From positions 1 through 36,303 of IMG/VR virus record IMGVR_UViG_3300000228_000015: 36,303 bases of DNA. One strand, 5' to 3'. Shown here piece after piece: positions 230 to 36,303 of this stretch. This stretch comes from a virus. The position numbers and the translations under genes are program-made. The notes under the pieces are model-generated. The model did no database searches, had not been told where the DNA came from, and was given only the letters and a program-made list of their open reading frames with translations. Every line of letters starts with the position of its first letter. Within the stretch, counting starts at the first letter, position 1.

Positions 230-448
230 TTATGCCCAGGTGGCAGGTACTACGGTTTTCCATGCTGTAGTATCCCAAATAACAATACGCGCTCCGGAAA
301 TACGCATTTCACCCTGTTTAGGGGCTTGAGTGGTTACATCCGCGGCATCAGCTGGAAAAGGAGCATCTGTCAGCAATCCTTTGCTAGTTACGGTACCGGG
401 AAAATTATGTTCGCAGTTATAATGCGTGAAAACTTTACTTGATGCCAT
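230..448 (-). CDS. Small putative virion-associated protein (72 aa)
   Basis: A complete 72-residue frame with an ATG start and a GGGAG Shine-Dalgarno about 8 bases upstream; a terminator follows the stop. No family is recognised. The C-terminal half (GEMRISGARIVIWDTTAW, residues 46-63) resembles the short beta-rich 'G-x-hydrophobic...W-D-x-x-x-W' stretches common in phage fibre and decoration proteins, so a virion role is a weak inference. Its start codon is preceded by a two-hairpin leader nearly identical to that of the gene starting at 35956, which suggests the two genes are co-regulated. There are no membrane segments or signal peptide. Confidence 0.7.
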   Translation of the reverse strand: MASSKVFTHYNCEHNFPGTVTSKGLLTDAPFPADAADVTTQAPKQGEMRISGARIVIWDTTAWKTVVPATWA

Positions 449-467
449 TTTTAACTCCCGCCCCTAT

Positions 468-513
468 ATCGTTCGAGAACGATCCTGACTGCTTCCAGGA
501 GATCCAGTCTAGT
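468..513 (-). promoter_or_regulatory. Two-hairpin 5' leader, copy A
   Basis: Read on the minus strand, the leader starts with ACTAGA and forms a first hairpin GACTG...CAGTC (487-491 with 505-509). A second, palindromic hairpin ATCGTT-CTCG-AACGAT follows (468-483). The ATG of the downstream gene begins after a gap of exactly 19 bases. The same element occurs at 35892-35936, about 41 of 46 positions identical by hand alignment, with the same 19-base gap. The first stem differs by a paired change (T-A here, C-G there), which suggests it is selected as RNA structure. It may act in translation, RNA processing or as a guide-RNA-like segment. Confidence 0.65.
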
Positions 514-723
514 ATTAATTTGATAATTCCCTGCTAGTTCGCCACTATTTAAAGTTCAGACAAAATCTAAACCCCCAAGATGTGTCATTAGTAAAATAGT
601 GATGCTTTCAAAAGATTAGTTGTTAAATTATTCAACTGATGAGGGAAGAGATACATCAACCTCGTGACTAATCATTACCAGGAAATTCAAGAAAAATTTA
701 ATTCAAATCTTACCGGATAAAAA
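514..723. promoter_or_regulatory. Divergent intergenic region, probable promoters
   Basis: This AT-rich stretch separates the leader of the minus-strand gene from the plus-strand pair starting at 724, so it should hold promoters in both directions. I see no convincing -35/-10 pair. It contains GATTAGT (614-620) and its reverse complement ACTAATC (667-673), a heptamer that recurs in other intergenic stretches of this window. There is no open frame of note and no tRNA-like fold. Confidence 0.35.
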
Positions 724-1341
724 ATGTCATCTTTAACCCAAGAGGAAGTAGAAAAAAGATACGCTGAGCAGGGGATCCAATTGTTGGAAATTTTCAAAGG
801 TGTACATATTCCCCACGATTATAGATGTACGTGTGGCAAAATTCATCGAAAGACACCAAATTCATTATTACAAAAAATTCATGAATGTCCGGATGAATCA
901 CGAGAGCGTAGGAGAATTAATAAGCAAAATGAATATGTGGAATTATTCAAATCTATGGATGCAGAATTATTAGGAGAATATAGAGGCGCTAAAATTCGAG
1001 TGAAATATAGATGTGTCTGTGGCAAGATATCTGAAATTACTCCTGCCAATTTTCGTCAAGGCAGGCGATGTTTTGAATGTGGTAAAAAGAAAGCTTATTC
1101 CATACGTATGGGAGTGACCCTGAAAGAAAAAACAGTAGAATCTGCTTCCGATAAATTCATGAGAGAATTATCTGAGATAGCAAAAAAACATAACGGAGAA
1201 ATAATAAATAAATCAGGGAAATATGTCACTTTTCAGTGTCGATGTGGTTCTCAAGACATCAAAACTGTTATTTCTTATCGCCGGAATCCGCTATGTGAAA
1301 AATGTGTCCGTAAAAATAGAACAGATCAAGTGAAATCATGA
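724..1341 (+). CDS. Zinc-finger repeat protein, probable DNA-binding partner of a nuclease
   Basis: A 205-residue protein with three related cysteine modules: YRCTCGKIH near residue 33, VKYRCVCGKIS...CFEC at about 93-118, and FQCRCGS...LCEKC at about 170-194. The second and third have the CxC(G) plus CxxC pairs expected of a treble-clef or zinc-ribbon fold; the first has only one late Cys. The unit (aromatic-C-x-C-G, Thr/Ser stretch, C-x-x-C) resembles repeats seen in phage proteins linked to homing or VSR-like endonucleases. It overlaps the next gene by 4 bases (ATGA), so the two are probably translated together. No good Shine-Dalgarno precedes the ATG. DNA binding is inferred; no catalytic motif is visible here. 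Confidence 0.8.
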   Translation: MSSLTQEEVEKRYAEQGIQLLEIFKGVHIPHDYRCTCGKIHRKTPNSLLQKIHECPDESRERRRINKQNEYVELFKSMDAELLGEYRGAKIRVKYRCVCGKISEITPANFRQGRRCFECGKKKAYSIRMGVTLKEKTVESASDKFMRELSEIAKKHNGEIINKSGKYVTFQCRCGSQDIKTVISYRRNPLCEKCVRKNRTDQVKS

Positions 1342-9425: not shown

Positions 9426-10841
9426 TCATTTGTGGAATCTGCAATTAGTGGTGTTTCCCATTATTGTCTTTCCAGGTTGAATAAACTTACAAAAACTTAT
9501 AAGACGAGGAATTCCTGGAATTTCCTCTAGTGTGTTTTTTGACAACATAGGTATCTGTCTATTCAGTCTTTGAATAGGTGATGGTTGTCTCTTGAGAGAT
9601 TTCCACCTGGTACCTAACTCAGTTAGAGTCACTTTCTTCAATGTCTGCCACTTACCAAATGACTCCTTAGAGTTCATTCGAGAATCTCGATTCCTTCCAT
9701 TGGTTGATCGATCATCCTGAAGTGATGACAAACATCTTAGATTCTTTGGAACTTTTTCTGTAAAACCTTGAGCTCTTCTTGCTTGAACCATCGCAGCTGC
9801 GCAGTGGTTACTTAACCCCAAACGAGGAGCATATTTTAAGACTCCAATTACTGAAGTATATGCACAAGGAGTTTCAACAATTACAACACCTTTTCTTTCA
9901 GCGACTGAAGTGATCTTATTTCTGAGAGATTGTACTCCAAAATTACCAATTACACGACGAAGTCCTTTACTACTGCCAGATCCTTTCTTGGAATTTTGAA
10001 CATTCACTCCATCCATAGCAATTGAAGAATCTGTTGAAAGGGCTTGGTCCACTATTTGATTAGCTAATTCATATCTTTTGAGTTCTCTTCGTTTAGTGGA
10101 TAAGTAAGTCAATTCTCCTGTTTTGATGTTTTCATGTGATTGTAAATTCCCGTCTTCTTTCACAATCGCAACTGCAATCGAATGTGGACTAGCATTGAAA
10201 TCAATTCCCAACATTTTCTGTTTTTTGGTAACTTTTTTCTTAACTATCTTGAACGTAACGTATGCCAACCAGATATTATTTCTACGTTGGACTCTAACGG
10301 CATATGGTGTACCTAAAGCAATTGATATCTGAAAATCTGACCAATATAATTTGTGGTGTCCTTTGTAATCCAGATAGATCCATTCTTTATGACCGACAGT
10401 TACTCTTAACTTGTGGTTATCAACAAATCTGATATGTCGATTACCGTCTTTATATGTATCTCCTGAATTGTATAAATTACATTGACGTTTCTCCACCCAT
10501 TCTTCTCTTAATTTGGATCTTTGAATATCTGAAATTCCTTTATTATTCAACTGTTCGAATAATTTCTTTGAACCAAATACGATCTTTGTTGGATCGATAT
10601 GACCTAATTCTTCGATTGATGAAATTTTAGCTTGAGCCTCTAAGACAGCTTCAGCAGCATATCTTGCATTCAACTCGAACTTTGACTGTAAAGATTTACG
10701 CAAATCCCCATAAGTCTCACCTTCTAATAACCGGTTGTAAGCATATCTCGTGCAAGATGAATATCGCCGACAAAGATCCAATAACTTGATCTCATCCACT
10801 GAATTTGGAAATAATCTAATAATGATGGTTTTATGACTCAT
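9426..10841 (-). CDS. tnpB: TnpB-family RNA-guided nuclease-like protein, atypical active site
   Basis: A 471-residue IS605/IS607 OrfB-type protein. The RuvC-I motif GIDFNAS (D214) is clear. The position of the RuvC-II Glu reads IAMDGVN (D277), and the RuvC-III region reads LSNHCAAAMVQARRA, with Asn/His (N345, H346) where canonical TnpB has an Asp. The usual CxxC...CxxC zinc ribbon between II and III is missing (CAYTSVIGVLKYAP instead). It may belong to a TnpB-related subfamily with this altered site, or be nuclease-weak or nuclease-dead. The last ~105 residues are low-complexity; this DNA overlaps the likely omegaRNA and is duplicated at 35.7 kb. The final ~25 codons may be read-through into flanking phage DNA. 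The start overlaps the tnpA stop. Confidence 0.88.
   Translation of the reverse strand: MSHKTIIIRLFPNSVDEIKLLDLCRRYSSCTRYAYNRLLEGETYGDLRKSLQSKFELNARYAAEAVLEAQAKISSIEELGHIDPTKIVFGSKKLFEQLNNKGISDIQRSKLREEWVEKRQCNLYNSGDTYKDGNRHIRFVDNHKLRVTVGHKEWIYLDYKGHHKLYWSDFQISIALGTPYAVRVQRRNNIWLAYVTFKIVKKKVTKKQKMLGIDFNASPHSIAVAIVKEDGNLQSHENIKTGELTYLSTKRRELKRYELANQIVDQALSTDSSIAMDGVNVQNSKKGSGSSKGLRRVIGNFGVQSLRNKITSVAERKGVVIVETPCAYTSVIGVLKYAPRLGLSNHCAAAMVQARRAQGFTEKVPKNLRCLSSLQDDRSTNGRNRDSRMNSKESFGKWQTLKKVTLTELGTRWKSLKRQPSPIQRLNRQIPMLSKNTLEEIPGIPRLISFCKFIQPGKTIMGNTTNCRFHK
9497..9771 (-). ncRNA. Putative omegaRNA region at the tnpB 3' end
   Basis: In IS605/IS607 elements the guide (omega) RNA overlaps the end of tnpB and runs into the flank. 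Here the tail holds hairpins CTAAC/GTTAG (9614-9626), CTATTCA/TGAATAG (9559-9577) and GAGGAA/TTCCTC (9506-9527). All three are kept in the free-standing copy at 35.67-35.92 kb with loop or paired-base changes. 54 bases (9609-9662) are identical in both copies. Sequence after the last hairpin would be the guide. Exact RNA ends are unknown. Confidence 0.5.
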
Positions 10842-11413
10842 TTCTTTTTCCTACCACCACGCCTATCGTGAATACGAGCGGCATAAACAGTCACTATGCT
10901 AATTAAATCTTCGACAAATTCTTCTTCATAAGGTTTATCTGGTTTATCATTGAGAACTACTACTTCAACCCCCAATAATTCACACCACTGATGAAATGTG
11001 GGGAACCCATATCTAAGTATCCGATCCCTGTATTCCACTATAACTTTAGAGACATCCTCATCGAGTAGCCTCTTTAGCAACTTTCGATAATCTTTTCTCT
11101 TCTCGTTGAGAGCACTACCTATATCTTTAAAAAGTTCAACCTTATATCCTTTTTCTACGCAATAAGTAAGCAATCTACCAACCTGTCTCTCTAAATTCTC
11201 CTCTTGAGCTCGTGTAGATACTCTAGCATAAACCAACACCTTATCACGAGGCATTCCAGACTTTAATCTTCGGATTTCATCTTCGGGTATTCTTCGATGT
11301 CCGCCTGAACTTCTGACGGTGATTATTTTATCATTATTACTCCAATTTCTCAAAGTTTGAGTAGTCACACCCAACTCTTTGGCCGCCACGGATAAAGTTA
11401 CTAGATTGCTCAT
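10838..11413 (-). CDS. tnpA: IS607-type serine recombinase
   Basis: Catalyses element mobility. The 191-residue protein begins with a MerR-like helix-turn-helix (VAAKELGVTTQTLRNW, residues 9-24, then GGHRRIP), followed by the serine-recombinase domain VLVYARVSTRAQEENLERQ with nucleophile S67. It carries the usual short C-terminal region of IS607 TnpA (EEEFVEDLISIVTVYAARI). All expected motifs are intact. The start at 11413 is preferred because the helix-turn-helix follows directly; it has no good Shine-Dalgarno and lies inside a small upstream frame (11337-11525), suggesting coupled translation. Overlaps tnpB by ATGA. Confidence 0.93.
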   Translation of the reverse strand: MSNLVTLSVAAKELGVTTQTLRNWSNNDKIITVRSSGGHRRIPEDEIRRLKSGMPRDKVLVYARVSTRAQEENLERQVGRLLTYCVEKGYKVELFKDIGSALNEKRKDYRKLLKRLLDEDVSKVIVEYRDRILRYGFPTFHQWCELLGVEVVVLNDKPDKPYEEEFVEDLISIVTVYAARIHDRRGGRKKK

Positions 11414-11525
11414 ATAATTTTTGAAATTCATCCAATATAGGTTCATAATCGAGAGGTGGATCTATTTCAAAAATCGAACCATCATCCAACTCGTATTCTT
11501 CTTTTGTTACACGGATTAGTCTCAT
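11337..11525 (-). CDS. Small acidic protein overlapping tnpA (possibly truncated by the element)
   Basis: A 62-residue frame beginning MRLIRVTKEEYELDDGS. The first ~40 residues look like a genuine small acidic protein. The last ~22 (from QSSNFIR) are read in a different frame over the tnpA start and look like chance coding. A GTGG-rich Shine-Dalgarno-like stretch lies about 5-10 bases upstream of the ATG; a GTG 12 bases further up is also possible. Two readings fit: a leader peptide carried by the element and coupled to tnpA, or a phage gene cut by the insertion. Confidence 0.45.
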   Translation of the reverse strand: MRLIRVTKEEYELDDGSIFEIDPPLDYEPILDEFQKLYEQSSNFIRGGQRVGCDYSNFEKLE

Positions 11526-15100: not shown

Positions 15101-16239
15101 TTTTTATCAAGACCTCCCAAAGCCACAGACATGTCAAAACTTGTTATTTTATGAGGTTTATTTGCCAGAAAAGAATTTGCTTCATCTTTTGGGTGCGTTC
15201 CTTCAACAATAGGATTGACTGTAGTTTGTGGTACCCAAGACAATGGTCCACTAAATTCTTCGTGATTTACACTTTCTTGGAGTTTTAATACTGATTTATC
15301 TTTACCGACATAAATTAAATCTCCAATAGTAGTCATTCTTCCCCCGACAACCAATAAAAAAGTAACTTCTAGGAAATTTTCAGCCTTGTTTATTAAAGAG
15401 TTATCTATCGTAAATTCGACCCCAAAAACATCATCCCCCTCATTAGAATCTTCTGAGAGGCCATCTGTATCGTCATAAGGTTCAGAAAAAAGAATGTGAG
15501 TTATTTTGTCATTTGGAATTATAGTTTCTGCGTTGAATTTTACTTTACGTTTAATTGATCCCCCAGTATTCTGAGACGGCAATGTTTGGCAAAATTCTAA
15601 TTCTGTTATAGATAAGGAATAGACAGCTTCGCCTGGATTACCGACAAATATCGATAAACTTAAATCCGACTGCATTATGTCCTCTTCTGTATCATAAGGG
15701 TCAATTGCGCCACCCATTCTCCCTTTATTCGCCATCGTCAAGACGAGTTCTGGTAGTTCATTTGATATAGTTCCTAATATACTTTCCTGGTTTACTTCTT
15801 CTTCACTAAATAACTTACGTGAGTATGACCGCATATCCCCCTTGACATAACTAAAGTCTGGTAACGGATTTACTACGTTGCCTCCCCAAAGTCTATAACC
15901 CCATGGGTCCATTCGCATTTTGAAAGAAATTTTAGGATTCTCATCTGGACGAAAATTTCTACTATAGATTCTCCTGCCGGATTCCACCCGAGAACCACTA
16001 GACCAAAATTTTAATATCGAAAAGGGAATACCAATCTCATTATATTTAGGAAAAAGAAAGTTACTTAAATTACCTGGGGAGGAACCCAAAACCATACCAC
16101 CCGGACCGGAAACACCTGGAAAACCGCACAATAATTCAGCTACAGTTGGTGGTAATGGTGGTAAAAAAGTTGAATCCTCTATGCCTCTAGGAGTAAAGAA
16201 AACATTAGAACCAAAATCGTCATTACTATTTATGCTCAT
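15097..16239 (-). CDS. Protein of unknown function, probable virion component (380 aa)
   Basis: No family recognised. The N-terminus (residues 1-60) is rich in Gly, Pro and Phe, followed by a region rich in aromatic and charged residues and a beta-like second half. No catalytic motif, signal peptide or membrane helix is visible. The start overlaps the preceding stop (ATGA) and its own stop overlaps the next ATG, so it is made together with its neighbours, probably in matched amounts, which suits parts of one structure. An assembly or tail/baseplate role is a guess. Confidence 0.85.
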   Translation of the reverse strand: MSINSNDDFGSNVFFTPRGIEDSTFLPPLPPTVAELLCGFPGVSGPGGMVLGSSPGNLSNFLFPKYNEIGIPFSILKFWSSGSRVESGRRIYSRNFRPDENPKISFKMRMDPWGYRLWGGNVVNPLPDFSYVKGDMRSYSRKLFSEEEVNQESILGTISNELPELVLTMANKGRMGGAIDPYDTEEDIMQSDLSLSIFVGNPGEAVYSLSITELEFCQTLPSQNTGGSIKRKVKFNAETIIPNDKITHILFSEPYDDTDGLSEDSNEGDDVFGVEFTIDNSLINKAENFLEVTFLLVVGGRMTTIGDLIYVGKDKSVLKLQESVNHEEFSGPLSWVPQTTVNPIVEGTHPKDEANSFLANKPHKITSFDMSVALGGLDKK

Positions 16240-17630
16240 AATTGTGTTATGAATAATTTACCGGTGAATTTCTCTGTTAAATGAATTACATTCCCGCATT
16301 GTTTCCATTGGCTTAATTTGTTAATAGAAACAGTTTCTGAAATTGTTCTTATGGCAATAATGGACGTGACTGATGTGTGCGATTTTACTGATAATTCTAG
16401 ATTATATCCATTATTAGATGGAATGATTAAATGATTATCTAGATTACCGAGGTTAAATGTGGAAACTTCTGCCGATAAACCTACTGGTATCCATTCGATA
16501 TCTACCCCATTGAGTCTAGGCATAAACATCGAATGCCCGTCAGTAAAATTAAAGAAAAGTCCTTCTTTTCTCTCAATAGATACTTCACATGATGGTGGTA
16601 ATGATATATGTTGGTAAAAATCATCATCTACTTCCAAATCTTCAAAATCCACACATAATGGTCCTATAGATTTTATCTTTTTTGGTATTGTAAATGATAA
16701 ACAAGAACCAGTTCGGCGTAGTGGAGTTTGTGTGTTTAATTGTATGTATTTTTTCGGTTCATCATCCACTTTCATATAAACCTTACCCGAACTTTCCGAA
16801 CACATCAAATTGACTGTATTTATTTTCCTATTCGAATTTACCCCCATTTTTATGTCAATCACACCACCAGCTTTATCGATAATATATTCGTTATTAAATA
16901 CACCATTAAAAATAACATCTTCATTAATACCTCGGTGTGTCATCTCAAATTCTTTAACTAACCTACTAGTATCTGTTAAATTAGAAATAGTAATATGTTC
17001 ACTCGAGCTGGTGGTAGTCTGTAAGGTCAGGTCAATTACATTTAAACCATTCACAACAGTGAATTGGGAACTATCCATTATATCAATCGTGGATACCGTG
17101 GGGATAGATAGTAGAGGGTTAGACACAGACTCTAATAATGATGGTAAAACTGGATCCCCCGATTCCTCTATCCGCTTTGTATAAGTATTCCTAGTCATAA
17201 AAGGATCCGATGAATTTCTTATGGCGCTAATACCTTCTTTTAGAATATTTAATTGATACCTGATCCATTCCTGCTGCTTAATAAATAAGCTTCCAAAAGA
17301 TAAGATTCCAGAAATTTGTGACTCTACTGGAATCTTCTGTAAAATTCTATCTCTACTGATCTCTTTCAATTTGGCTATATTATTATCCGCAATAATTTTC
17401 AAATTCGTATTTTGTTGTACAGTAGGTGTAGTTTCTAAAGAATGTAAAAAATTATTATCATCTATGATGTATAAATCACTCAAGGGGATCAATCCTTCCT
17501 CACGTAATACACCAGAGAAAAAAGTACCAGGTACTAGAATATTCGGGGCTCCATCTACCTGATTGTTATCTCTAAGCCAGCCACAAACTCTCTTTTTGCC
17601 TCTTTCTAAACGATAAGTTGCTCTAAACAT
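16236..17630 (-). CDS. Protein of unknown function, probable virion component (464 aa)
   Basis: No family recognised. It begins MFRATYRLERGKKRV, has a helical, charged stretch at about 75-155, and is then beta-rich with many Ser/Thr and Ile/Val alternations. It is the first gene of the three-gene cassette and starts 4 bases after the DNA polymerase stop; its Shine-Dalgarno-like GGGGA is inside the end of the polymerase gene. No catalytic residues can be named. The location between replication genes and the IS element is unusual if it is structural. Confidence 0.85.
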   Translation of the reverse strand: MFRATYRLERGKKRVCGWLRDNNQVDGAPNILVPGTFFSGVLREEGLIPLSDLYIIDDNNFLHSLETTPTVQQNTNLKIIADNNIAKLKEISRDRILQKIPVESQISGILSFGSLFIKQQEWIRYQLNILKEGISAIRNSSDPFMTRNTYTKRIEESGDPVLPSLLESVSNPLLSIPTVSTIDIMDSSQFTVVNGLNVIDLTLQTTTSSSEHITISNLTDTSRLVKEFEMTHRGINEDVIFNGVFNNEYIIDKAGGVIDIKMGVNSNRKINTVNLMCSESSGKVYMKVDDEPKKYIQLNTQTPLRRTGSCLSFTIPKKIKSIGPLCVDFEDLEVDDDFYQHISLPPSCEVSIERKEGLFFNFTDGHSMFMPRLNGVDIEWIPVGLSAEVSTFNLGNLDNHLIIPSNNGYNLELSVKSHTSVTSIIAIRTISETVSINKLSQWKQCGNVIHLTEKFTGKLFITQL

Positions 17631-17634
17631 CTTT

Positions 17635-20600
17635 TTAAATCCCCAATGATTTTTTTATAAAAAAACTGATCTCTTCCTCGGTGAATTCAGTAGGATTTTC
17701 TATCCAAGTCCGATAATCTGTATCAGTTCCCTTTGGTTTTCGATTCAAAAACTTCAAAAGATTAGTTAAGATCATTTCCCAACCAAAAGCCCCTAGTAAT
17801 TTTTGACCTTTTTGGATGAAGTCTACTTGGACGATTTGGGCCACATCCGGTTTGAGTGACATCAATTCTTTTGGTAATTCTTCTTTAAAACAAATAGCCG
17901 TCCATTTCGGTAATGGTGGTTTTATTTTTAAACATCGAACTCTATCTCCTGAAAATATCTCTGGTACTGATGACTTAGATTCTCTCAATAACATATTATG
18001 TATAAGTGCCCCCTTAACGTGAATAGGTGCACTTTTTCCGAAAACATTCGGACCACTGCCTATATATTTTTCTAAATTATTAACAGCAACGGAGTAGCTC
18101 AGTCTATTAGCTACCTCTTGCGGAGACCCGATAGACAATAGATTATGCAATTTTTTAGCTCTATTCAAGAAATCTAATAATGCAGAATTCATGTCTAATT
18201 TTTTACCATTATCTAATAAATAATTAACAAGTATTTCTAATTCTTCCCTGATACCTTCACTCATGTTAACTTTCTTAAGTTCGAAACCAGTTATTTTTAA
18301 TTTCTTGGTATTAGCTGTCCTTATGATGTATTTTTTCTTCGCCAGATACATGGCACCGTCAGATATTTTCTCAGCCTCGTGTTCGAAAGCAATGGAAAAA
18401 TTGGATGTCGATCGCAGACGTTTTACTTTGAATTCTGCATTCATAAAAGTATTTAGAGTGGACACTGCTATATCGACCACAGCTTTTATTAATTTGATAT
18501 AATCACCCGCTTCATCATCAGGAAAAACACTTTCAACCAAGTCATCTAAGGCGAAAACAACAGAATCTGTATCCATAGTAACAACTCTATCGGTTATCGA
18601 ATCATCCCAAAACGGGATTTCCAGATGTTCTTTGTCGAATTCTTTAAGTATTTGTTGAAGAGCCGGAAGATGTTTTTTATAGATACTCTGGAAGAAAATA
18701 TTTATCCATTGTTCTGCATTCAAGACGACAGCTTGTCCGGTACTGGTGATGCCTTGTGCGGTTAAAGGATTGTATAATCTATTATACCGTGAGGCCAACT
18801 GTCCATAAGAAGCATTAAGTAATAGTTTCCAACCTAGTTGACCAGTATTATATTTATCCATCGCAACTTTGTCTTCTTCTAGATGATTCAGATCATAAGC
18901 ATCGCGATGTTTTTGGAACTTCCGTTTCAACAATTTACGGGTGGTGAATCCAGATTCAATAAAGGAGGCAAATACACCCTTTTCGTCTTCAGATGATGGA
19001 TTTTTGTGTAATGTTCCATCACCACTAATATTCCAAAGACCGGAGGATAGATTGTTTCTTAATACCACCGCGTCGATCGAAAACCCGGCTGGGGGATGCT
19101 CAGTCGTCGGCAGAGTCACTAGAAATTCATCACTTATCAATGAAGTATCTTCATCGAAAGAATTATCATTTTTTTCTGTGTCCCCTGGTGCCTCGTTGGG
19201 AGACATTTGTGGTTCGGTTGAAATCCAAATGTCTCCGTTTTCCGGTAGCAAATCCAATACGTCCAAGGTCAAAGCAGCCTTACGATTTAGAAGAGTCTTT
19301 GCCCCATCATCCCCCGGTGCCACTTGATAATGAAATACATTATCTAAATAGATCTTACCAATGAAAGTTTCGGGTGACATATTGAGTACAACCATACCAG
19401 TCGGATAAGAAGATGTAACATCAATACAAGTAGTGTGTTTATAAAATCGTCTTCCCCAAACACTTATAGGTTTTTTAACAAAACCTCCCTTAATTTTATC
19501 CAAATTCGGACTCACGAAATGTCCCGGAGCTACGAAATTCCGTTCACGTAAGAATTTAACTAAGGCTCCGTCTAATATAGCTGACATGTATACCACTCTA
19601 TCGACCGGGATACCAGCCAGTGAACAAAATTCACATGCTAACTCAGTGAGATTACGTTTGATATCTACATCAGCGGTCAAACGGACATCTCTTATATTAT
19701 ATGCTACATAAGTTTCCCAATGTTCTTTGAACATAGTAACAAGACTTAACTCTTTATTACCACCATCTCCGTATGCTTTTAATTTACCTTCACTGAATTC
19801 AAATTTACCAACATTGTCCAACGAGTATGATGAAAGGCTAATTCTTGTGAATTTTTTATAAAGATCCAGTAAATCTAGCAATCCTTTACCTGGTATTTTA
19901 ATGAACCATTTATTTCTAGCCTCTTTGGAATCATATTTTTTGTAAACACTCACATAACCAATATCTGACACAGAAGCTAAACCAGCCGCTAAGATTTTAT
20001 AATATTTATGTTTTTTATTCTTGGCAACAGATCTTAATACTTCGCATCTCCGATGTATGTAAGGTATATCATATTGGTTACTATTCCACCCAGATATAGT
20101 ATGCCCCTGACTCATTTCACCCAATATATGTGCTATCAAAGTCACTTCATCTTCACAATAGACAAACTCTGTATCATCTGGTAATTCATTCATTTGTTCT
20201 TGGGTTAATGGTTTTATGCCATAACAAATCATTTTATTTTCCCAATAACGTAAAAATGTACAAGCTGTTATAGGCCATAATGCTTTTTCGGGAGACGGAA
20301 AACCAGTTTCAGAAAAGACTTCTATATCAAAATATAATCGTTTCGGACGTATCACAGTCTCCGGTGTTTTAGGAAAAAGTTCAGATATTCTGGGAATCTC
20401 TGGGGGGACGAAACCATTTTCTTTGACAACTATTTTTTCTTCCCCCCCGATATTCTTGAGGTCTTCAGTCAAATTAAATAGCCTATCATATTTAATTTGG
20501 ATTAAACTATGTCCTTCTAATGATTTTAATTTGGTGTTTATTTGCGGATCTTCACTACTGGGGGCACGAACATAAATGGTAGGTTTCCAGTGGTCTTTAA

Positions 20601-20706
20601 TGTATCTGAGTGTCATGGAATCATCGAAGGCCCAGATGTGTAAATCCGAATTTTGACGATCCAGATAAGAATCAAAATAATATAAATCATCGAATGAAAT
20701 TGTCAT
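17635..20706 (-). CDS. Family B DNA polymerase with 3'-5' exonuclease
   Basis: The replicative phage polymerase. In the 1023-residue protein all key motifs are present: Exo I FDIEV (D127, E129), Exo II ISGWNSNQYD (about 204-213), Exo III YNIRD (about 336-340), Pol A DVTSSYP (about 429-435), Pol B KLLLNASYG (about 627-635) and Pol C MDTDS (about 711-715). Both activities should be intact. An acidic, Ser/Pro-rich stretch of some 40 residues (about 495-540, APGDTEKNDNSFDEDTS) lies between motifs A and B and looks like an insertion. T4 gp43 is about 900 residues. The start at 20706 is chosen because GGAG lies 9 bases upstream; in-frame TTG and ATG codons further up lack suitable spacing. A terminator precedes the gene, so it must have its own promoter or depend on read-through. 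Confidence 0.96.
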   Translation of the reverse strand: MTISFDDLYYFDSYLDRQNSDLHIWAFDDSMTLRYIKDHWKPTIYVRAPSSEDPQINTKLKSLEGHSLIQIKYDRLFNLTEDLKNIGGEEKIVVKENGFVPPEIPRISELFPKTPETVIRPKRLYFDIEVFSETGFPSPEKALWPITACTFLRYWENKMICYGIKPLTQEQMNELPDDTEFVYCEDEVTLIAHILGEMSQGHTISGWNSNQYDIPYIHRRCEVLRSVAKNKKHKYYKILAAGLASVSDIGYVSVYKKYDSKEARNKWFIKIPGKGLLDLLDLYKKFTRISLSSYSLDNVGKFEFSEGKLKAYGDGGNKELSLVTMFKEHWETYVAYNIRDVRLTADVDIKRNLTELACEFCSLAGIPVDRVVYMSAILDGALVKFLRERNFVAPGHFVSPNLDKIKGGFVKKPISVWGRRFYKHTTCIDVTSSYPTGMVVLNMSPETFIGKIYLDNVFHYQVAPGDDGAKTLLNRKAALTLDVLDLLPENGDIWISTEPQMSPNEAPGDTEKNDNSFDEDTSLISDEFLVTLPTTEHPPAGFSIDAVVLRNNLSSGLWNISGDGTLHKNPSSEDEKGVFASFIESGFTTRKLLKRKFQKHRDAYDLNHLEEDKVAMDKYNTGQLGWKLLLNASYGQLASRYNRLYNPLTAQGITSTGQAVVLNAEQWINIFFQSIYKKHLPALQQILKEFDKEHLEIPFWDDSITDRVVTMDTDSVVFALDDLVESVFPDDEAGDYIKLIKAVVDIAVSTLNTFMNAEFKVKRLRSTSNFSIAFEHEAEKISDGAMYLAKKKYIIRTANTKKLKITGFELKKVNMSEGIREELEILVNYLLDNGKKLDMNSALLDFLNRAKKLHNLLSIGSPQEVANRLSYSVAVNNLEKYIGSGPNVFGKSAPIHVKGALIHNMLLRESKSSVPEIFSGDRVRCLKIKPPLPKWTAICFKEELPKELMSLKPDVAQIVQVDFIQKGQKLLGAFGWEMILTNLLKFLNRKPKGTDTDYRTWIENPTEFTEEEISFFIKKSLGI

Positions 20707-20723
20707 ATACAGCATCTCCAAAT

Positions 20724-20763
20724 AAAAAGGGTTTATAGATCTCTAAGATCAATAAACCCTTTT
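20724..20763 (-). terminator. Intrinsic terminator after the topoisomerase large-subunit gene
   Basis: 20725-20736 and 20752-20763 form a 12-bp perfect stem (AAAAGGGTTTAT), with an inner GATCT/AGATC stem in the loop. On the minus strand five T follow at once. It stands 18 bases beyond the topoisomerase stop and just before the ribosome binding site of the polymerase. On the plus strand four T end the stem, so weak termination there is possible. Confidence 0.8.
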
Positions 20764-20780
20764 TGCCCGGGAATTAAATT

Positions 20781-22583
20781 TCAGAAATTGAACATATAAC
20801 TACAATCACCTAACCATTCCTTACGAAGATCCGCGGAATTCGGTCCCTTACCAAAAACTAATTCGAAATATTTATCGGAATTCTCATCAACTTCCACTCT
20901 TTCCAATAAAGGTTTTAATAATATTTTTTTAACATCCGTCAAAGATAAGGATCCGAGTCCTTTTATATACTTCATATCAGATGGCAATGGTGATGGCAAT
21001 TCATTTTCATGATAATAAAAATCCCTTTTGCCCCCAGCGATATATCTCGGTGTCAATAACCGGCAAATTCTACCTTTCATTAAGAGTTCAGGCCAAAAAC
21101 GCCAATAAAAACCATAAAGTAAACCACATATAGATGTGCCATCATGATCAGCATCAGTAGTTATGTAGATTTTACTATATCTACAATTAACTATATTTGG
21201 GGATGTCATAGATAACCCCATCACAGAGCATAAATCCAACAAAGCCACACTATCCGCAGATTTGAGAATATTATCTTCACCTATAACGTTTTTGATTTTA
21301 CCCTTTAAACAATAAACTGCTTGAGTCTTGGGGTTTCTAGCTTGAGCAAAGAAACCTTTAGCAGAATCCCCTTCTGTAATTATCAAAATACGATCCTCAG
21401 CTTTTGAAGCAGTTGCATCTATTAATTTTTCAGATTTTACACGTCGCTTACTGCCTTTTTCCTTACCACGTATTTTCTTGTGTGTTCGTTCCTCAACAAC
21501 AGACTCGATGAGTTTTACGAATTCTTCATTATTACTCAGTTCTTCAGCGACCAGGTCAACTAATGGTTCCAAATTAGTTTTTAAGTCGTTTTTATCGCAA
21601 TCAACCATTTCCAATTTTGTCGGACTGTGAAATGCTGGGTTTTTTACCCTTATTGCGAGCAATCCCCCAACATTTCTAGATATATCTCCTCTTTCCAATC
21701 CTTCAATCTTCATTAGATCCACGAGCTTTCCAGATAATAAAGATTTGAAATTTTTTACATGGAGACCACCACATTCTGTGCCATTTACCCAACCGACAAA
21801 AGAGCTAGTATCGTTAGTTACAACAGCTCGACAAAAACCACCCGACACATCACAAAGGGGTTCAATCTCATTTCCTTTTATGAAATCTTCTCCTCGGAGT
21901 AATGGGATTTCACCATCATCATAATAACACTTCACGTCAATTTCCGGGTAACAAAACATGATGTTGTTCAAGAGTTGTAAAACAACCTCAATATCTTTCG
22001 CCGTCCATTGTAATCTATTTAGATCTAAATAGACATCGACCTCAGTGCCGGTTTCGCCTTCATAATCTGTAATTTCTGGCTTATCAATGTTACTCAGATT
22101 ATTGCGGAATGACTGGGTGTACTGTTTGCCGTTAAATCTTGTAACTAGATCCATTCTAGTCGACATGACATTGACTGCAAATACACCGATACCGAATAAA
22201 CCAGATGTCGCTCTCTCCCCTTCAAAATTCGATCCAGCTAATGAATTTGCGAATGCTAATTCAGGCTGCCAAACACCAGATTCTGAGTCTTTTTTAATCG
22301 GGATACCGGTACCGTTATCTATTACTTTGAATCCGTCCTCCCGCAAGAATACTTGTATAGAATCACCGTTCTTGAACTTGGAACGAATAGCTGCATCGAC
22401 TGAATTATCCAATACTTCCTGAACCGCTCTGATGGAAGCTGGAGAATAGCCACTCACGTCTTTTATCACACCACCAACATAACCTTTCCTAAGATCTTTA
22501 GAAGGTGTGATTGGTCCGAGGTAGAGATCGGTTCTCAAAAGTACATGTTCGACTGGATTTAATTTCTTGACATCGCTTACCAT
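20781..22583 (-). CDS. Type II DNA topoisomerase, ATPase subunit (T4 gp39/gp60-like, undivided)
   Basis: GyrB/ParE-type subunit that partners the gp52-like protein. In the 600-residue protein: GHKL ATPase motifs EVLDNSVDAA (E56 to A65), VIDNGTGIP (87-95) and GLFGIG (128-133); the QTK-loop equivalent SPTKLEM (320-326); and the TOPRIM metal site ITEGDSA (E404) with TDADHDG (D477, D479, D481). T4 splits this protein over genes 39 and 60; here it is a single frame. GGAG lies about 12 bases before the ATG. It is preceded by a homing endonuclease gene and followed by a terminator. Confidence 0.96.
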   Translation of the reverse strand: MVSDVKKLNPVEHVLLRTDLYLGPITPSKDLRKGYVGGVIKDVSGYSPASIRAVQEVLDNSVDAAIRSKFKNGDSIQVFLREDGFKVIDNGTGIPIKKDSESGVWQPELAFANSLAGSNFEGERATSGLFGIGVFAVNVMSTRMDLVTRFNGKQYTQSFRNNLSNIDKPEITDYEGETGTEVDVYLDLNRLQWTAKDIEVVLQLLNNIMFCYPEIDVKCYYDDGEIPLLRGEDFIKGNEIEPLCDVSGGFCRAVVTNDTSSFVGWVNGTECGGLHVKNFKSLLSGKLVDLMKIEGLERGDISRNVGGLLAIRVKNPAFHSPTKLEMVDCDKNDLKTNLEPLVDLVAEELSNNEEFVKLIESVVEERTHKKIRGKEKGSKRRVKSEKLIDATASKAEDRILIITEGDSAKGFFAQARNPKTQAVYCLKGKIKNVIGEDNILKSADSVALLDLCSVMGLSMTSPNIVNCRYSKIYITTDADHDGTSICGLLYGFYWRFWPELLMKGRICRLLTPRYIAGGKRDFYYHENELPSPLPSDMKYIKGLGSLSLTDVKKILLKPLLERVEVDENSDKYFELVFGKGPNSADLRKEWLGDCSYMFNF

Positions 22584-22678
22584 TTTATGATTCTTCTCCG
22601 TTGATTGATCTGATGAAAAATTATTTGTGTGCTTGATTAACTATAGTTGCAATAGCTCAGGAATTAGTTTCCCGAATT
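22584..22678 (-). promoter_or_regulatory. Gap between the homing endonuclease and topoisomerase genes
   Basis: 95 bases without an open frame. On the minus strand it ends in ACGGAGAAG about 10 bases before the topoisomerase ATG. A TATAGT hexamer is present but no -35 box sits at a normal distance, so I do not call a promoter. No hairpin terminator follows the endonuclease gene. Confidence 0.3.
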
Positions 22679-24298
22679 TTACTCAATAGACAAATTCAGC
22701 TCATTTTCGTAAACCAAATTTCCACAATCCCAAATTCTATCATAAGCATTCATAAGCATATTTTTCCATGCAGATAAATCGGGATCGAAAATCGCCAATT
22801 TATCTTTCAGGAGATGTTTTTGAAAACGATTTCTTGAATGAAGATTAACATAGTCTTTTGTGTAGAAATGATTGGGTGTTGAAGTTCGTAAATAAGTGAA
22901 CCCCATAGCTTGATAGAGTTTACCATTTGACCAACGGCGATTAGCATAACTGATAATCGACCCCCTATTTTCAATTCTGAAAGCTTTCAACAACTTACTG
23001 GCAGCCCCAATTACCTGATAATTTTTCTCACTACAAAATCGAATCAACTCCCAATCATGACTTTTAGAGAAACGAGACTTATTGAAAGTCATCAATGCCA
23101 CTAGTTTACCCTCATGGAACAAACCTTTCCTGATAGCAGCACTCACATAACCTTGGAGATGATTTTGTTCCAGAAATGATCTACTCTCTAGGTCCGACAC
23201 ATCTCTTACAATAGTTTTTCTCGCCCCTATTTTATGATCACATATTCCCAGTTTGCTTTTCACTACGGATAACCAAAGTTCCAACGGTTCATTGTCAAAA
23301 ATATGAAGTAGTTGAATTCCTTGTTTCTCACATGCCAAAGTTTTATTCAAATGATAATTTTTGTCTTTCCCTTGATTTTCTGAGTGCCAATAAACCCCAT
23401 CGAATTCGATCGCCAATCCGTGTTCCGGGAAATAAATATCTATTTCGAATGGAGGAATCAATTTCCTAGTGTTGGTTATAATTTCACCCACATAGAAGTC
23501 TCTAATACGATCCAGCAAGTGTATTTCAGCCGCTGAATTAAATTTCTCAAACCTAAGAGGGATATCATGTAACTTTAAATATCGAGTAATTGTGCAAAAA
23601 GACAATTTTAGAATATTAGCCAACACTTGACAATTATGTGAGGACTCTTCGAACATCTTATTCATTTTATTTTTATCTTCTAATATTATTCGTATTTCTG
23701 GTGAATAATATTCACCCAATATTTTATTTCTTACAAATGTTTTGAACTGATCCGTTTGTGAAAAATGTTCTTTACCGAAATTCTTTAAATTCGTTTTTTT
23801 CTGTTTCTCTAATATAGTGTAATTTTTCAGGGGATGAGTGCACCCGTATTTTTCTAAACTTGTTTTTCTCTTCTTGTCTTTACATTCATCTGTCTCAGCA
23901 TAATTATCGACCCCATATAATTCTCGATTTCTAGAAATCGAAATGGTTTTAAATTCGGCAACTTTAGCAAAATTATCAACTCCATATCTGGCTGAATTAG
24001 TCTCTATAGTTTTACTTCTAATAAAAGGGGAATTAGCAATGCATTTTGTACTGCAATATAGAACAGGGTTTCTTTTGGGTACCAAATCCCCACCACAAAC
24101 TAAACATTTCTCTAGATCGGTCTGACCGTTTAGATATGCAAATACACGAATATTAAAATTCACTGATGGAGGAAAAAATGAAGTGGCCTGCATTAAGGCA
24201 TATTTGAAATCGAAATCCATCGTTTTTTCAAATTGGCTATTTAATCTGGTTCCGTCTTTAATGAAAGCATTGTACAATATATATTCTCGGAGGGTCAT
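22679..24298 (-). CDS. Free-standing homing-type endonuclease (VSR-like, with DNA-binding repeats)
   Basis: A 539-residue multidomain protein of a kind common as mobile genes in large phages. In order: a treble-clef CLVCGG...YCSTKC (about 65-86); repeats of the 'YGvdNfa...f' type (YGVDNFAKVAEFK, YGVDNYAET, YGCTHPLKN, FGKEHFSQTDQFK; about 105-186) used for DNA recognition; a VSR/EDxHD-like nuclease core with FEIDIYF (D287) and LAIEFDGVYWHSE (E298, D300, H305); and a C-terminal domain (about 355-480, FLEQNHLQGY, KLVALMTF, GAASKLLKAF) often attached to such nucleases. The ATG at 24298 follows AAGGA; a TTG 18 bases up lacks one. It sits between the capsid and topoisomerase genes, after the capsid terminator, as expected for an intergenic homing insertion. 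Confidence 0.88.
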   Translation of the reverse strand: MTLREYILYNAFIKDGTRLNSQFEKTMDFDFKYALMQATSFFPPSVNFNIRVFAYLNGQTDLEKCLVCGGDLVPKRNPVLYCSTKCIANSPFIRSKTIETNSARYGVDNFAKVAEFKTISISRNRELYGVDNYAETDECKDKKRKTSLEKYGCTHPLKNYTILEKQKKTNLKNFGKEHFSQTDQFKTFVRNKILGEYYSPEIRIILEDKNKMNKMFEESSHNCQVLANILKLSFCTITRYLKLHDIPLRFEKFNSAAEIHLLDRIRDFYVGEIITNTRKLIPPFEIDIYFPEHGLAIEFDGVYWHSENQGKDKNYHLNKTLACEKQGIQLLHIFDNEPLELWLSVVKSKLGICDHKIGARKTIVRDVSDLESRSFLEQNHLQGYVSAAIRKGLFHEGKLVALMTFNKSRFSKSHDWELIRFCSEKNYQVIGAASKLLKAFRIENRGSIISYANRRWSNGKLYQAMGFTYLRTSTPNHFYTKDYVNLHSRNRFQKHLLKDKLAIFDPDLSAWKNMLMNAYDRIWDCGNLVYENELNLSIE

Positions 24299-24336
24299 AG
24301 TAATCCTTTTTATCAAAAAACTGATTCAGTCCCAAC

Positions 24337-35569: not shown

Positions 35570-35669
35570 AAATCAGATAGAATTCTCAATAATCACTATA
35601 ACTGTTAAACCATCATGACTAATCCATTAAATACAATTTTGATCAATAGATCGAATCATCATCTACGGA
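35570..35669 (+). promoter_or_regulatory. Intergenic stretch before the TnpB-tail relic
   Basis: 100 bases without a gene. It contains ACTAATCCATTAAA (35618-35631), an exact copy of the sequence 24 bases before the kelch gene. No U-rich terminator hairpin follows the kelch stop. It could carry the promoter of the transcript that includes the relic and the gene at 35956. Confidence 0.35.
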
Positions 35670-35920
35670 GGATTTACAGAAGAAGTTCCAAAAAATCTGA
35701 GATGTTTGTCATCACTTCAGGATGAGAGTTCTACCGATGGAAGGAAACTCGATTCTCGAATGAAGGATTCGTCCTCATTTGGTAAGTGGCAGACATTGAA
35801 GAAAGTGACTCTAACTGAGTTAGGTACCGGATGGCAGCCATCACCTATTCAATCTTTGAATAGACAGATACCTATTAGACAAAAAACTAACACTAGACCG
35901 ATTTCCTGGAAGCGGTCAGG
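35670..35920 (+). mobile_element. TnpB-tail / omegaRNA-like relic without TnpB core
   Basis: Aligns with the 3' end of tnpB from Gly359 (GFTEEVPKNLRCLSSL here, GFTEKVPKNLRCLSSL there) to the last hairpin, with the reading frame kept through a 12-base deletion. 54 bases (35775-35828) are identical to 9609-9662. No RuvC core, TnpA or start codon is present; a frame can be read only from non-ATG codons to a TAA at 35952-35954, and I do not call it a gene. Hairpins: CTAAC/GTTAG (35811-35823), CTATTCAA/TTGAATAG (35845-35863) and GACCG/CGGTC (35896-35917). Upkeep of stems with changed loops or pairs suggests a retained RNA. Confidence 0.75.
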
Positions 35921-35936
35921 ATCGTTTTCGAACGAT
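35892..35936 (+). promoter_or_regulatory. Two-hairpin 5' leader, copy C
   Basis: Continuous with the end of the TnpB-tail relic. First hairpin GACCG...CGGTC (35896-35900 with 35913-35917), then the palindrome ATCGTT-TTCG-AACGAT (35921-35936), then 19 bases to the ATG at 35956. Copy A at 468-513 has the same order, about 41 of 46 identical positions and the same 19-base gap. The UUCG loop here is CUCG in copy A. It stands in the 5' untranslated region of the last gene. Confidence 0.65.
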
Positions 35937-35955
35937 TTAGGATCAGGATTTTAAG

Positions 35956-36303
35956 ATGGCAATTTATTATGGTGTATGTGATAATTTTAATGGATATCGT
36001 ATTAACATTGGTCGTTCAATGTTAAGTTGCGGTCCGAGGGTACTTTTTTTCGCGAGTGGAATGTCCGGCGAAGCTGTTAAATATAAAGCGGGTATCATGC
36101 CTCCAGCTCAATTTCAAGATGTTTTATGTGCGGATGATTTTTTCGCCAGATCGGCATCTATGAACACTCGTTTAAACAACAACCCACTCATCATAGGATG
36201 TTGTACAGATGCTACTACTGCTTCTGCTGATACCTTATTAGATACTTGTATTGGTGGTATGTCGGTTTCTTCTGAAACTTCTCTTAGTGTGAACGGTCAG
36301 GGG
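35956..36303 (+). CDS. N-terminal part of an unidentified protein, probably virion-related (partial)
   Basis: An open frame of 116 codons from ATG to the right edge with no stop (MAIYYGVCDNFNGYRINIG...). AGGA lies 7 bases upstream of the ATG. Rich in Ala, Ser, Thr, Cys and Gly with beta-like stretches; no family recognised and no signal peptide. It follows the relic/leader closely: the relic frame stops 1 base before this ATG. It shares the leader type with the small gene at 230-448, so the two may be expressed together. The gene continues outside the window. Confidence 0.75.
   Translation, partial: MAIYYGVCDNFNGYRINIGRSMLSCGPRVLFFASGMSGEAVKYKAGIMPPAQFQDVLCADDFFARSASMNTRLNNNPLIIGCCTDATTASADTLLDTCIGGMSVSSETSLSVNGQG

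What the first reader, a model, noticed from the sequence alone, without database searches (positions are those of the whole stretch)
35670..35936. Free-standing omegaRNA-like copy of a tnpB 3' end, without TnpB
About 250 bases match the tail of the tnpB at 9.4-10.8 kb. 54 bases are identical, and elsewhere the loops or paired bases change while stems stay: CTATTCA(aagac)TGAATAG versus CTATTCAA(tct)TTGAATAG, and GAGGAA/TTCCTC versus GACCG/CGGTC. In IS605/IS607 elements this region encodes the omegaRNA scaffold. A core-less copy with intact stems, placed directly before a phage gene, looks like an RNA kept after the protein was lost, possibly able to work in trans with the resident TnpB. The alternative is a recent, still decaying insertion relic.
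Basis: partly seen in the sequence, partly recalled or inferred. Interest (0 to 1): 0.8.

Follow-up and report, generated by a model that had tools for sequence, protein, structure and literature searches.

The report
Orphan transposon guide-RNA copy in phage
A phage genome carries, just in front of one of its genes, a stranded but still perfectly foldable copy of the guide-RNA end of a small transposon, most likely the young remnant of a second transposon whose enzyme genes are gone; whether the phage's remaining enzyme still uses it is open and directly testable.

Summary
Positions 35669-35947 (+) are about 80% identical to the 3' end of the resident IS607-type tnpB (E 1e-62), with 54 identical bases in a row. 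Both fold alike: 63 shared pairs, 10 changed on both sides and all still paired (0 of 500 shuffles reach this). About 75 relatives from hot-spring bacteria and phages show that this region is the element's omegaRNA and right end: a covarying stem around ACCGATGGAAGGAA, a CCTGG-loop hairpin, a last hairpin, and an end in ACCAGG. A model built without window sequences ranks the resident tail and the copy first and second in the window. Best reading: a young, 5'-truncated remnant of a second, diverged IS607 element with an intact scaffold (70/70 pairs; at most about 7 neutral substitutions), ending 8 bases before a phage start codon. Trans use by the resident TnpB, or co-option as a gene leader, is possible but unproven. 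A partial third copy (443-521, -) before another phage gene favours co-option somewhat. No relative spanning the site was found.

The parts
35669..35947 (+). Solitary right-end/omegaRNA fragment of an IS607-type element (the finding); no tnpA, tnpB or recognisable left end attached
   Evidence: BLASTN to 9768-9512; family right-end anatomy; model R1 hit 35726-35750, E 0.0028, from a model built without window sequences
35669..35695 (+). Residual tnpB coding sequence upstream of the RNA fold (GFTEEVPKN)
   Evidence: 4 differences from tnpB, 3 at third codon positions and synonymous
35696..35802 (+). Outer stem P0 (35696-35712 with 35786-35802) enclosing hairpins P1 and P2
   Evidence: Same fold predicted separately for copy and tnpB; 15 pairs, identical in both
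35719..35756 (+). P1 hairpin with conserved loop ACCGATGGAAGGAA; 3 of 10 pairs changed on both sides against tnpB
   Evidence: the inner stem appears independently with covariation in 27 relatives
35757..35781 (+). P2 hairpin (copy AGGA-UUCG-UCCU, tnpB ACUC-UAAG-GAGU); 3 pairs changed on both sides
35806..35863 (+). Hairpins at 35806-35822, 35830-35842 (P3a) and 35845-35863 (P3)
35896..35917 (+). P4 hairpin with CCTGG loop, a family right-end signature; 4 pairs changed on both sides against tnpB
   Evidence: 56 of 74 relatives have a 6-bp hairpin around C[CT]TGG
35920..35937 (+). P5 terminal hairpin (ATCGTT-TTCG-AACGAT)
   Evidence: the same hairpin with loop CTCG occurs at 443-521
35942..35947 (+). 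Inferred right end of the element (ATCAGG; family ACCAGG)
   Evidence: 67 of 74 relatives have an ACCAGG-like end; similarity between separate Caldicoprobacter insertions stops 1-6 nt after CCAGG
35949..35968 (+). Predicted guide segment (TTTTAAGATGGCAATTTATT) if the RNA is used; overlaps the start codon
   Evidence: Inference from the right end plus the one-nucleotide scaffold rule of IS607 ISXfa1 (PMC10711439)
35956..36303 (+). Phage gene directly downstream (253 aa, continues beyond the window); its Shine-Dalgarno-like AGGA lies at the element's right end
   Evidence: no homologue found
443..521 (-). Partial third copy: P4- and P5-like hairpins, degenerate end (GCGGG) and ribosome-binding site before the 72-aa gene 230-448 (-)
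   Evidence: 82% over 79 nt to 35884-35961, E 8.5e-15
9426..10841 (-). Resident TnpB-related protein, 471 aa, with the omegaRNA (about 9742-9472) inside its 3' coding sequence
   Evidence: NCBIfam TnpB-type hits; relatives; RuvC-II E to D
10838..11446 (-). Resident IS607-family serine transposase TnpA
   Evidence: NCBIfam transpos_IS607, E 1.8e-56

Best explanation
The segment is the right end, with the complete omegaRNA scaffold, of a second IS607-type element of the same family as the resident one but diverged about 20% from it. The front of that element (left end, tnpA, nearly all of tnpB) is gone or was never copied; its right end abuts the ribosome-binding site of a phage gene. Shown: homology, shared fold, compensating changes, family right-end anatomy, absence of attached tnp genes. 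Inferred: the truncation is young in evolutionary terms, the region is read as part of the 5' leader of the downstream gene, and the resident TnpB could still bind the RNA because the scaffold is intact. If it did, the guide would be about TTTTAAGATGGCAATTTATT and would aim at alleles of this gene that lack the insertion, as TnpB normally does at its own site. I take no present selected function as the default.
For: Match to tnpB tail; shared 63-pair fold with 10 doubly changed pairs, all paired; P1 stem found independently in 27 relatives; model R1 from relatives alone ranks the resident tail and the copy first and second in the window; right-end anatomy in 67 of 74 relatives and at separate insertions; coding-type differences in the 27-nt 5' remnant; 70 of 70 pairs intact, compatible with no more than about 7 neutral substitutions since selection stopped; TnpB-deleted but omegaRNA-bearing copies sharing one deletion exist in Caldicoprobacter, so such derivatives arise in this family.
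Against: Absence of any broken pair is also what continued selection would give. A third partial copy placed the same way before another gene (443-521) is unexpected for an unselected relic. No left end or empty site could be identified, so the truncation event itself is inferred.
Confidence: 0.58

Rival explanations
1. Working trans-acting omegaRNA: the resident TnpB loads the RNA transcribed from about 35696-35968 and uses the guide over the start codon, as a homing aid that cuts insertion-free alleles of competing phages or as an RNA-guided regulator of the gene.
For: Scaffold intact; core identical to the resident omegaRNA over 54 nt; intact right end with a guide position. TnpB-driven bias towards insertion-bearing DNA is shown for IS200/605 in plasmids (PMC11870625), and TnpB processes the 5' end of its own omegaRNA from mRNA (PMC10278001).
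Against: No transcript data; no convincing promoter; no second target for the guide in the contig; the resident TnpB has E to D at the second RuvC acid, seen in no aligned relative; the 27 strong omegaRNA hits examined in relatives all sit behind a TnpB gene or fragment.
Confidence: 0.19
2. Co-opted 5' leader: right-end hairpins P4-P5 and the adjoining ribosome-binding site now serve expression of the downstream gene, without TnpB; the same module precedes the gene at 448 (-).
For: 82% match over 79 nt between two leaders, with the P4 stem kept by a compensating change and an unchanged P5 stem; in both the ribosome-binding site lies at the right end, 7-8 nt before ATG.
Against: Two cases only; the upstream scaffold P0-P3 would be superfluous, yet is intact; the similarity past the right end (A.TT.AA.ATGGCA) may reflect ribosome-binding-site constraint alone.
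Confidence: 0.18
3. The segment is kept as a coding fragment (open for about 95 codons in the tnpB frame, TAA at 35952) that makes a TnpB-tail peptide.
For: Open frame.
Against: Net +1 indel shift against tnpB within the frame; no good start codon; no protein family hit; the open frame is inherited, because the family encodes its omegaRNA inside the tnpB CDS.
Confidence: 0.03

Closest known systems
omegaRNA/reRNA of IS607-type TnpB elements (ISXfa1, PMC10711439; ISFba1 with RAGATH-18, PMC11061315)
   Same: Structured RNA at the right end of an IS607 element, ending at a GG-type transposon end with the guide just beyond
   Different: Here there is no TnpB attached; the scaffold is encoded inside the tnpB CDS, as in its Thermus/Aquificota relatives; no Rfam family matches, so it is not RAGATH-18
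Thermus/Aquificota 'TnpB-related' tnpB elements (e.g. L007, L020, L024; phage phiLo L005)
   Same: Same RNA anatomy: ACCGANGGAAGGAA hairpin, CCTGG-loop hairpin, ACCAGG end
   Different: Those copies are attached to a tnpB gene
TnpB-deleted, omegaRNA-bearing copies in Caldicoprobacter oshimai (L118, L124, L128)
   Same: Right end and omegaRNA kept after TnpB coding sequence was lost
   Different: There the element keeps the tnpB start and end and has an internal deletion; here everything in front of the last 27 coding bases before the RNA fold is missing
omegaRNAs encoded away from their nuclease (IscB of Ktedonobacter racemifer; from memory, not checked here)
   Same: Guide-RNA locus without its nuclease gene next to it
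   Different: IscB rather than IS607 TnpB; bacterial chromosome rather than phage

Membership tests
omegaRNA (reRNA) of IS607-type TnpB | Homology to the right end of a tnpB element of that type | tested here: met
   80% to the resident tnpB tail; resident tnpA is IS607-family
omegaRNA (reRNA) of IS607-type TnpB | Conserved secondary structure with covariation | tested here: met
   10 doubly changed pairs, 0/500 shuffles; P1 independently in relatives; model hits
omegaRNA (reRNA) of IS607-type TnpB | Scaffold runs to the transposon right end, guide beyond it | tested here: met
   ATCAGG at 35942-35947 corresponds to the family's ACCAGG end; the guide itself is inferred
omegaRNA (reRNA) of IS607-type TnpB | Transcribed, processed and bound by TnpB | not testable with these tools
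   No RNA data
Transposable non-autonomous IS607 element (MITE-like) | Both ends present | tested here: inconclusive
   Right end present; 35570-35668 shows no similarity to the resident's tnpA-proximal flank, but the left end of the sister lineage is unknown
TldR (nuclease-dead, TnpB-derived RNA-guided repressor) | RuvC catalytic residues lost | tested here: inconclusive
   RuvC-II E to D, unique among the aligned relatives; RuvC-III H shared with a natural clade
TldR (nuclease-dead, TnpB-derived RNA-guided repressor) | Immobilised, no transposase beside it | tested here: not met
   tnpA lies directly upstream of tnpB
RAGATH-18 or another Rfam family | Match above gathering score | tested here: not met

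The most novel reading that the evidence does not exclude
A phage keeps one or more TnpB-free omegaRNAs in the leaders of its own genes and supplies TnpB in trans from a single resident element, so that one nuclease serves several guide loci for homing against rival phages or for RNA-guided control of its genes.
Probability: 0.17. Interest if true: 0.75.

Novelty: new member of a known kind. Interest (0 to 1): 0.42.

Why it matters
It shows an omegaRNA scaffold of a family not in Rfam surviving intact without its nuclease in a phage that still encodes a related TnpB. That makes the question of whether TnpB uses guide RNAs supplied in trans directly testable in a natural pair. If it does, a phage would have a multi-guide system with one nuclease; if not, it is a clean example of how such elements fall apart and leave hairpin leaders in front of genes.

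Tried and rejected
Chance similarity: rejected. Known Rfam RNA: no match. Left end in front of the copy: no similarity to the resident element's flank. Sigma-70-like and T4-late-like promoters: matches not above background or too frequent to mean anything. Guide targets elsewhere in the contig: none convincing. Close relatives of the copy in IMG/VR: none by DNA pattern; the single hit for the P4 pattern lies inside an unrelated gene. Relatives of the flanking genes: none; one 97%-identical contig (L135) covers 16144-23917 only, so an empty site could not be read. Solitary omegaRNAs in relatives: the weak phiLo hit at 124857 lies in an SNF2 gene and is chance. Reading the resident TnpB as nuclease-dead: not claimed, because H in RuvC-III is shared with a natural clade. 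An attempt to read the resident's left end from a joined small gene gave no unique answer. One tree run failed at display and was replaced by FastTree.

Full report
WHAT IS THERE. The window is most of a 42.9-kb IMG/VR contig of a large tailed phage with T4-type topoisomerase II, ribonucleotide reductase, SbcCD-like proteins, DNA polymerase, terminase and homing endonucleases. It carries one IS607-type element: tnpA 10838-11446 (-) (NCBIfam transpos_IS607, E 1.8e-56) and tnpB 9426-10841 (-) (weak hits to TnpB families; about 25-41% identity to 'TnpB-related' proteins of Thermus, Aquificota, Carboxydothermus and Thermus phages). The reported segment, 35669-35911 (+), matches the 3' end of that tnpB at 80% (E 1.4e-62) with a 54-base identical run.

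WHY IT IS AN OMEGARNA. In the relatives the 3' end of the tnpB CDS carries a constant RNA anatomy: a hairpin with loop ACCGANGGAAGGAA, a core TGGCGRGT...GGTAGC, further hairpins, a hairpin with a CCTGG or CTTGG loop, a last hairpin, and the end ACCAGG, after which sequences differ. In Caldicoprobacter, similarity between separate insertions stops 1-6 nt after CCAGG. RNAalifold on 27 relatives, without any window sequence, finds the first hairpin with strong covariation. A covariance model from those 27 puts the resident tnpB tail (E 0.0007) and the copy (E 0.003) first and second in the window; the next hit has E 0.5. The copy has all these elements and ends in ATCAGG at 35947, 8 nt before the ATG of the next gene.

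WHAT THE CHANGES SAY. Copy and tnpB share a 63-pair fold. Ten pairs are changed on both sides and all stay paired; none of 500 shuffles reaches this, and sliding the partners gives 0-3 such pairs. The folds were also predicted separately and agree in the 5' domain. So the divergence between the two sequences happened under selection for RNA structure. That does not mean the copy was selected after losing its protein: two full elements diverging in parallel would give the same result. The 27 bases of the copy upstream of the RNA fold are tnpB coding sequence; 3 of 4 differences there are synonymous third-position changes. This fits a diverged full-length sister element that lost its front, but the sample is small.

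HOW OLD. All 70 pairs of the copy (63 plus the last hairpin) are intact. About 35% of random substitutions would break one, so more than about 7 neutral substitutions (2.8%) since the end of selection are unlikely at the 5% level. The copy is therefore either a young relic or still under selection. This computation cannot separate the two.

THE PARTIAL THIRD COPY. 443-521 (-) matches 35884-35961 at 82%: both right-end hairpins, the ribosome-binding site and ATGGCA. One pair of the CCTGG-loop hairpin changes from C-G to U-A between them. It has no scaffold and its end is GCGGG. Two phage genes thus begin behind the same right-end-derived leader. This is the best argument for co-option as a leader and is not explained well by pure relic decay.

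CAN THE RESIDENT TNPB USE IT. The scaffold is intact and its core identical, so binding is plausible. Against activity, the resident TnpB has D where the aligned relatives have E at the second RuvC acid (72 E with D or H in RuvC-III and 1 further E; one fragment has Q); its RuvC-III H is shared with a natural clade with which it groups. I do not call it dead. In IS607 ISXfa1 one nucleotide beyond the right end belongs to the scaffold (PMC10711439), so the guide here would be about 35949-35968, over the start codon. No second target is in the contig.

CONTEXT IN RELATIVES. Of the strong model hits examined in related genomes and phage records (27 loci, window excluded), all sit behind a TnpB gene or a TnpB fragment, one of them cut by a contig end. 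Several have lost the middle of TnpB but keep the omegaRNA; in Caldicoprobacter oshimai two copies at different places share the same deletion junction and a third has it with an additional rearrangement, which suggests that TnpB-less derivatives can spread. A copy stripped of all but the right end, as here, was not seen elsewhere.

CONCLUSION. Confirmed as a real, structurally intact, TnpB-free omegaRNA copy. Most likely a young truncated remnant of a second element. Trans function and leader co-option are open and testable.

Noticed in passing
L006:4148-4517 (Thermus phage Lalka27b, PQ109077.1 54065-54434): A TnpB-family gene in a phage is followed within about 15 bases by an annotated CRISPR-like array (about 7 repeats GTTTCTCCCGTGCGCGCATGGAGGCACCG with unequal spacers), an unusual pairing of TnpB and array.
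   Followed up: partly
window 443-521 (-): Right-end-derived hairpins, without omegaRNA scaffold, form the leader and ribosome-binding site of a second phage gene (72 aa, 230-448).
   Followed up: partly
window 9426-10841 (-), codon near residue 277: Resident TnpB has D in place of the RuvC-II catalytic E of its relatives.
   Followed up: partly
L118, L124, L128 (Caldicoprobacter oshimai): Copies of an IS607-type element with a shared internal tnpB deletion but intact omegaRNA at different chromosomal sites: probable non-autonomous derivatives mobilised in trans.
   Followed up: partly
window 22679-24316 (-) and 724-1341 (+): HNH/homing endonuclease genes next to the topoisomerase and nucleotide-metabolism genes of the phage.
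   Followed up: no
window 16144-23917 (L135): A 7.8-kb IMG/VR contig from another sample is 97% identical and colinear over this stretch, so the phage has close relatives.
   Followed up: yes
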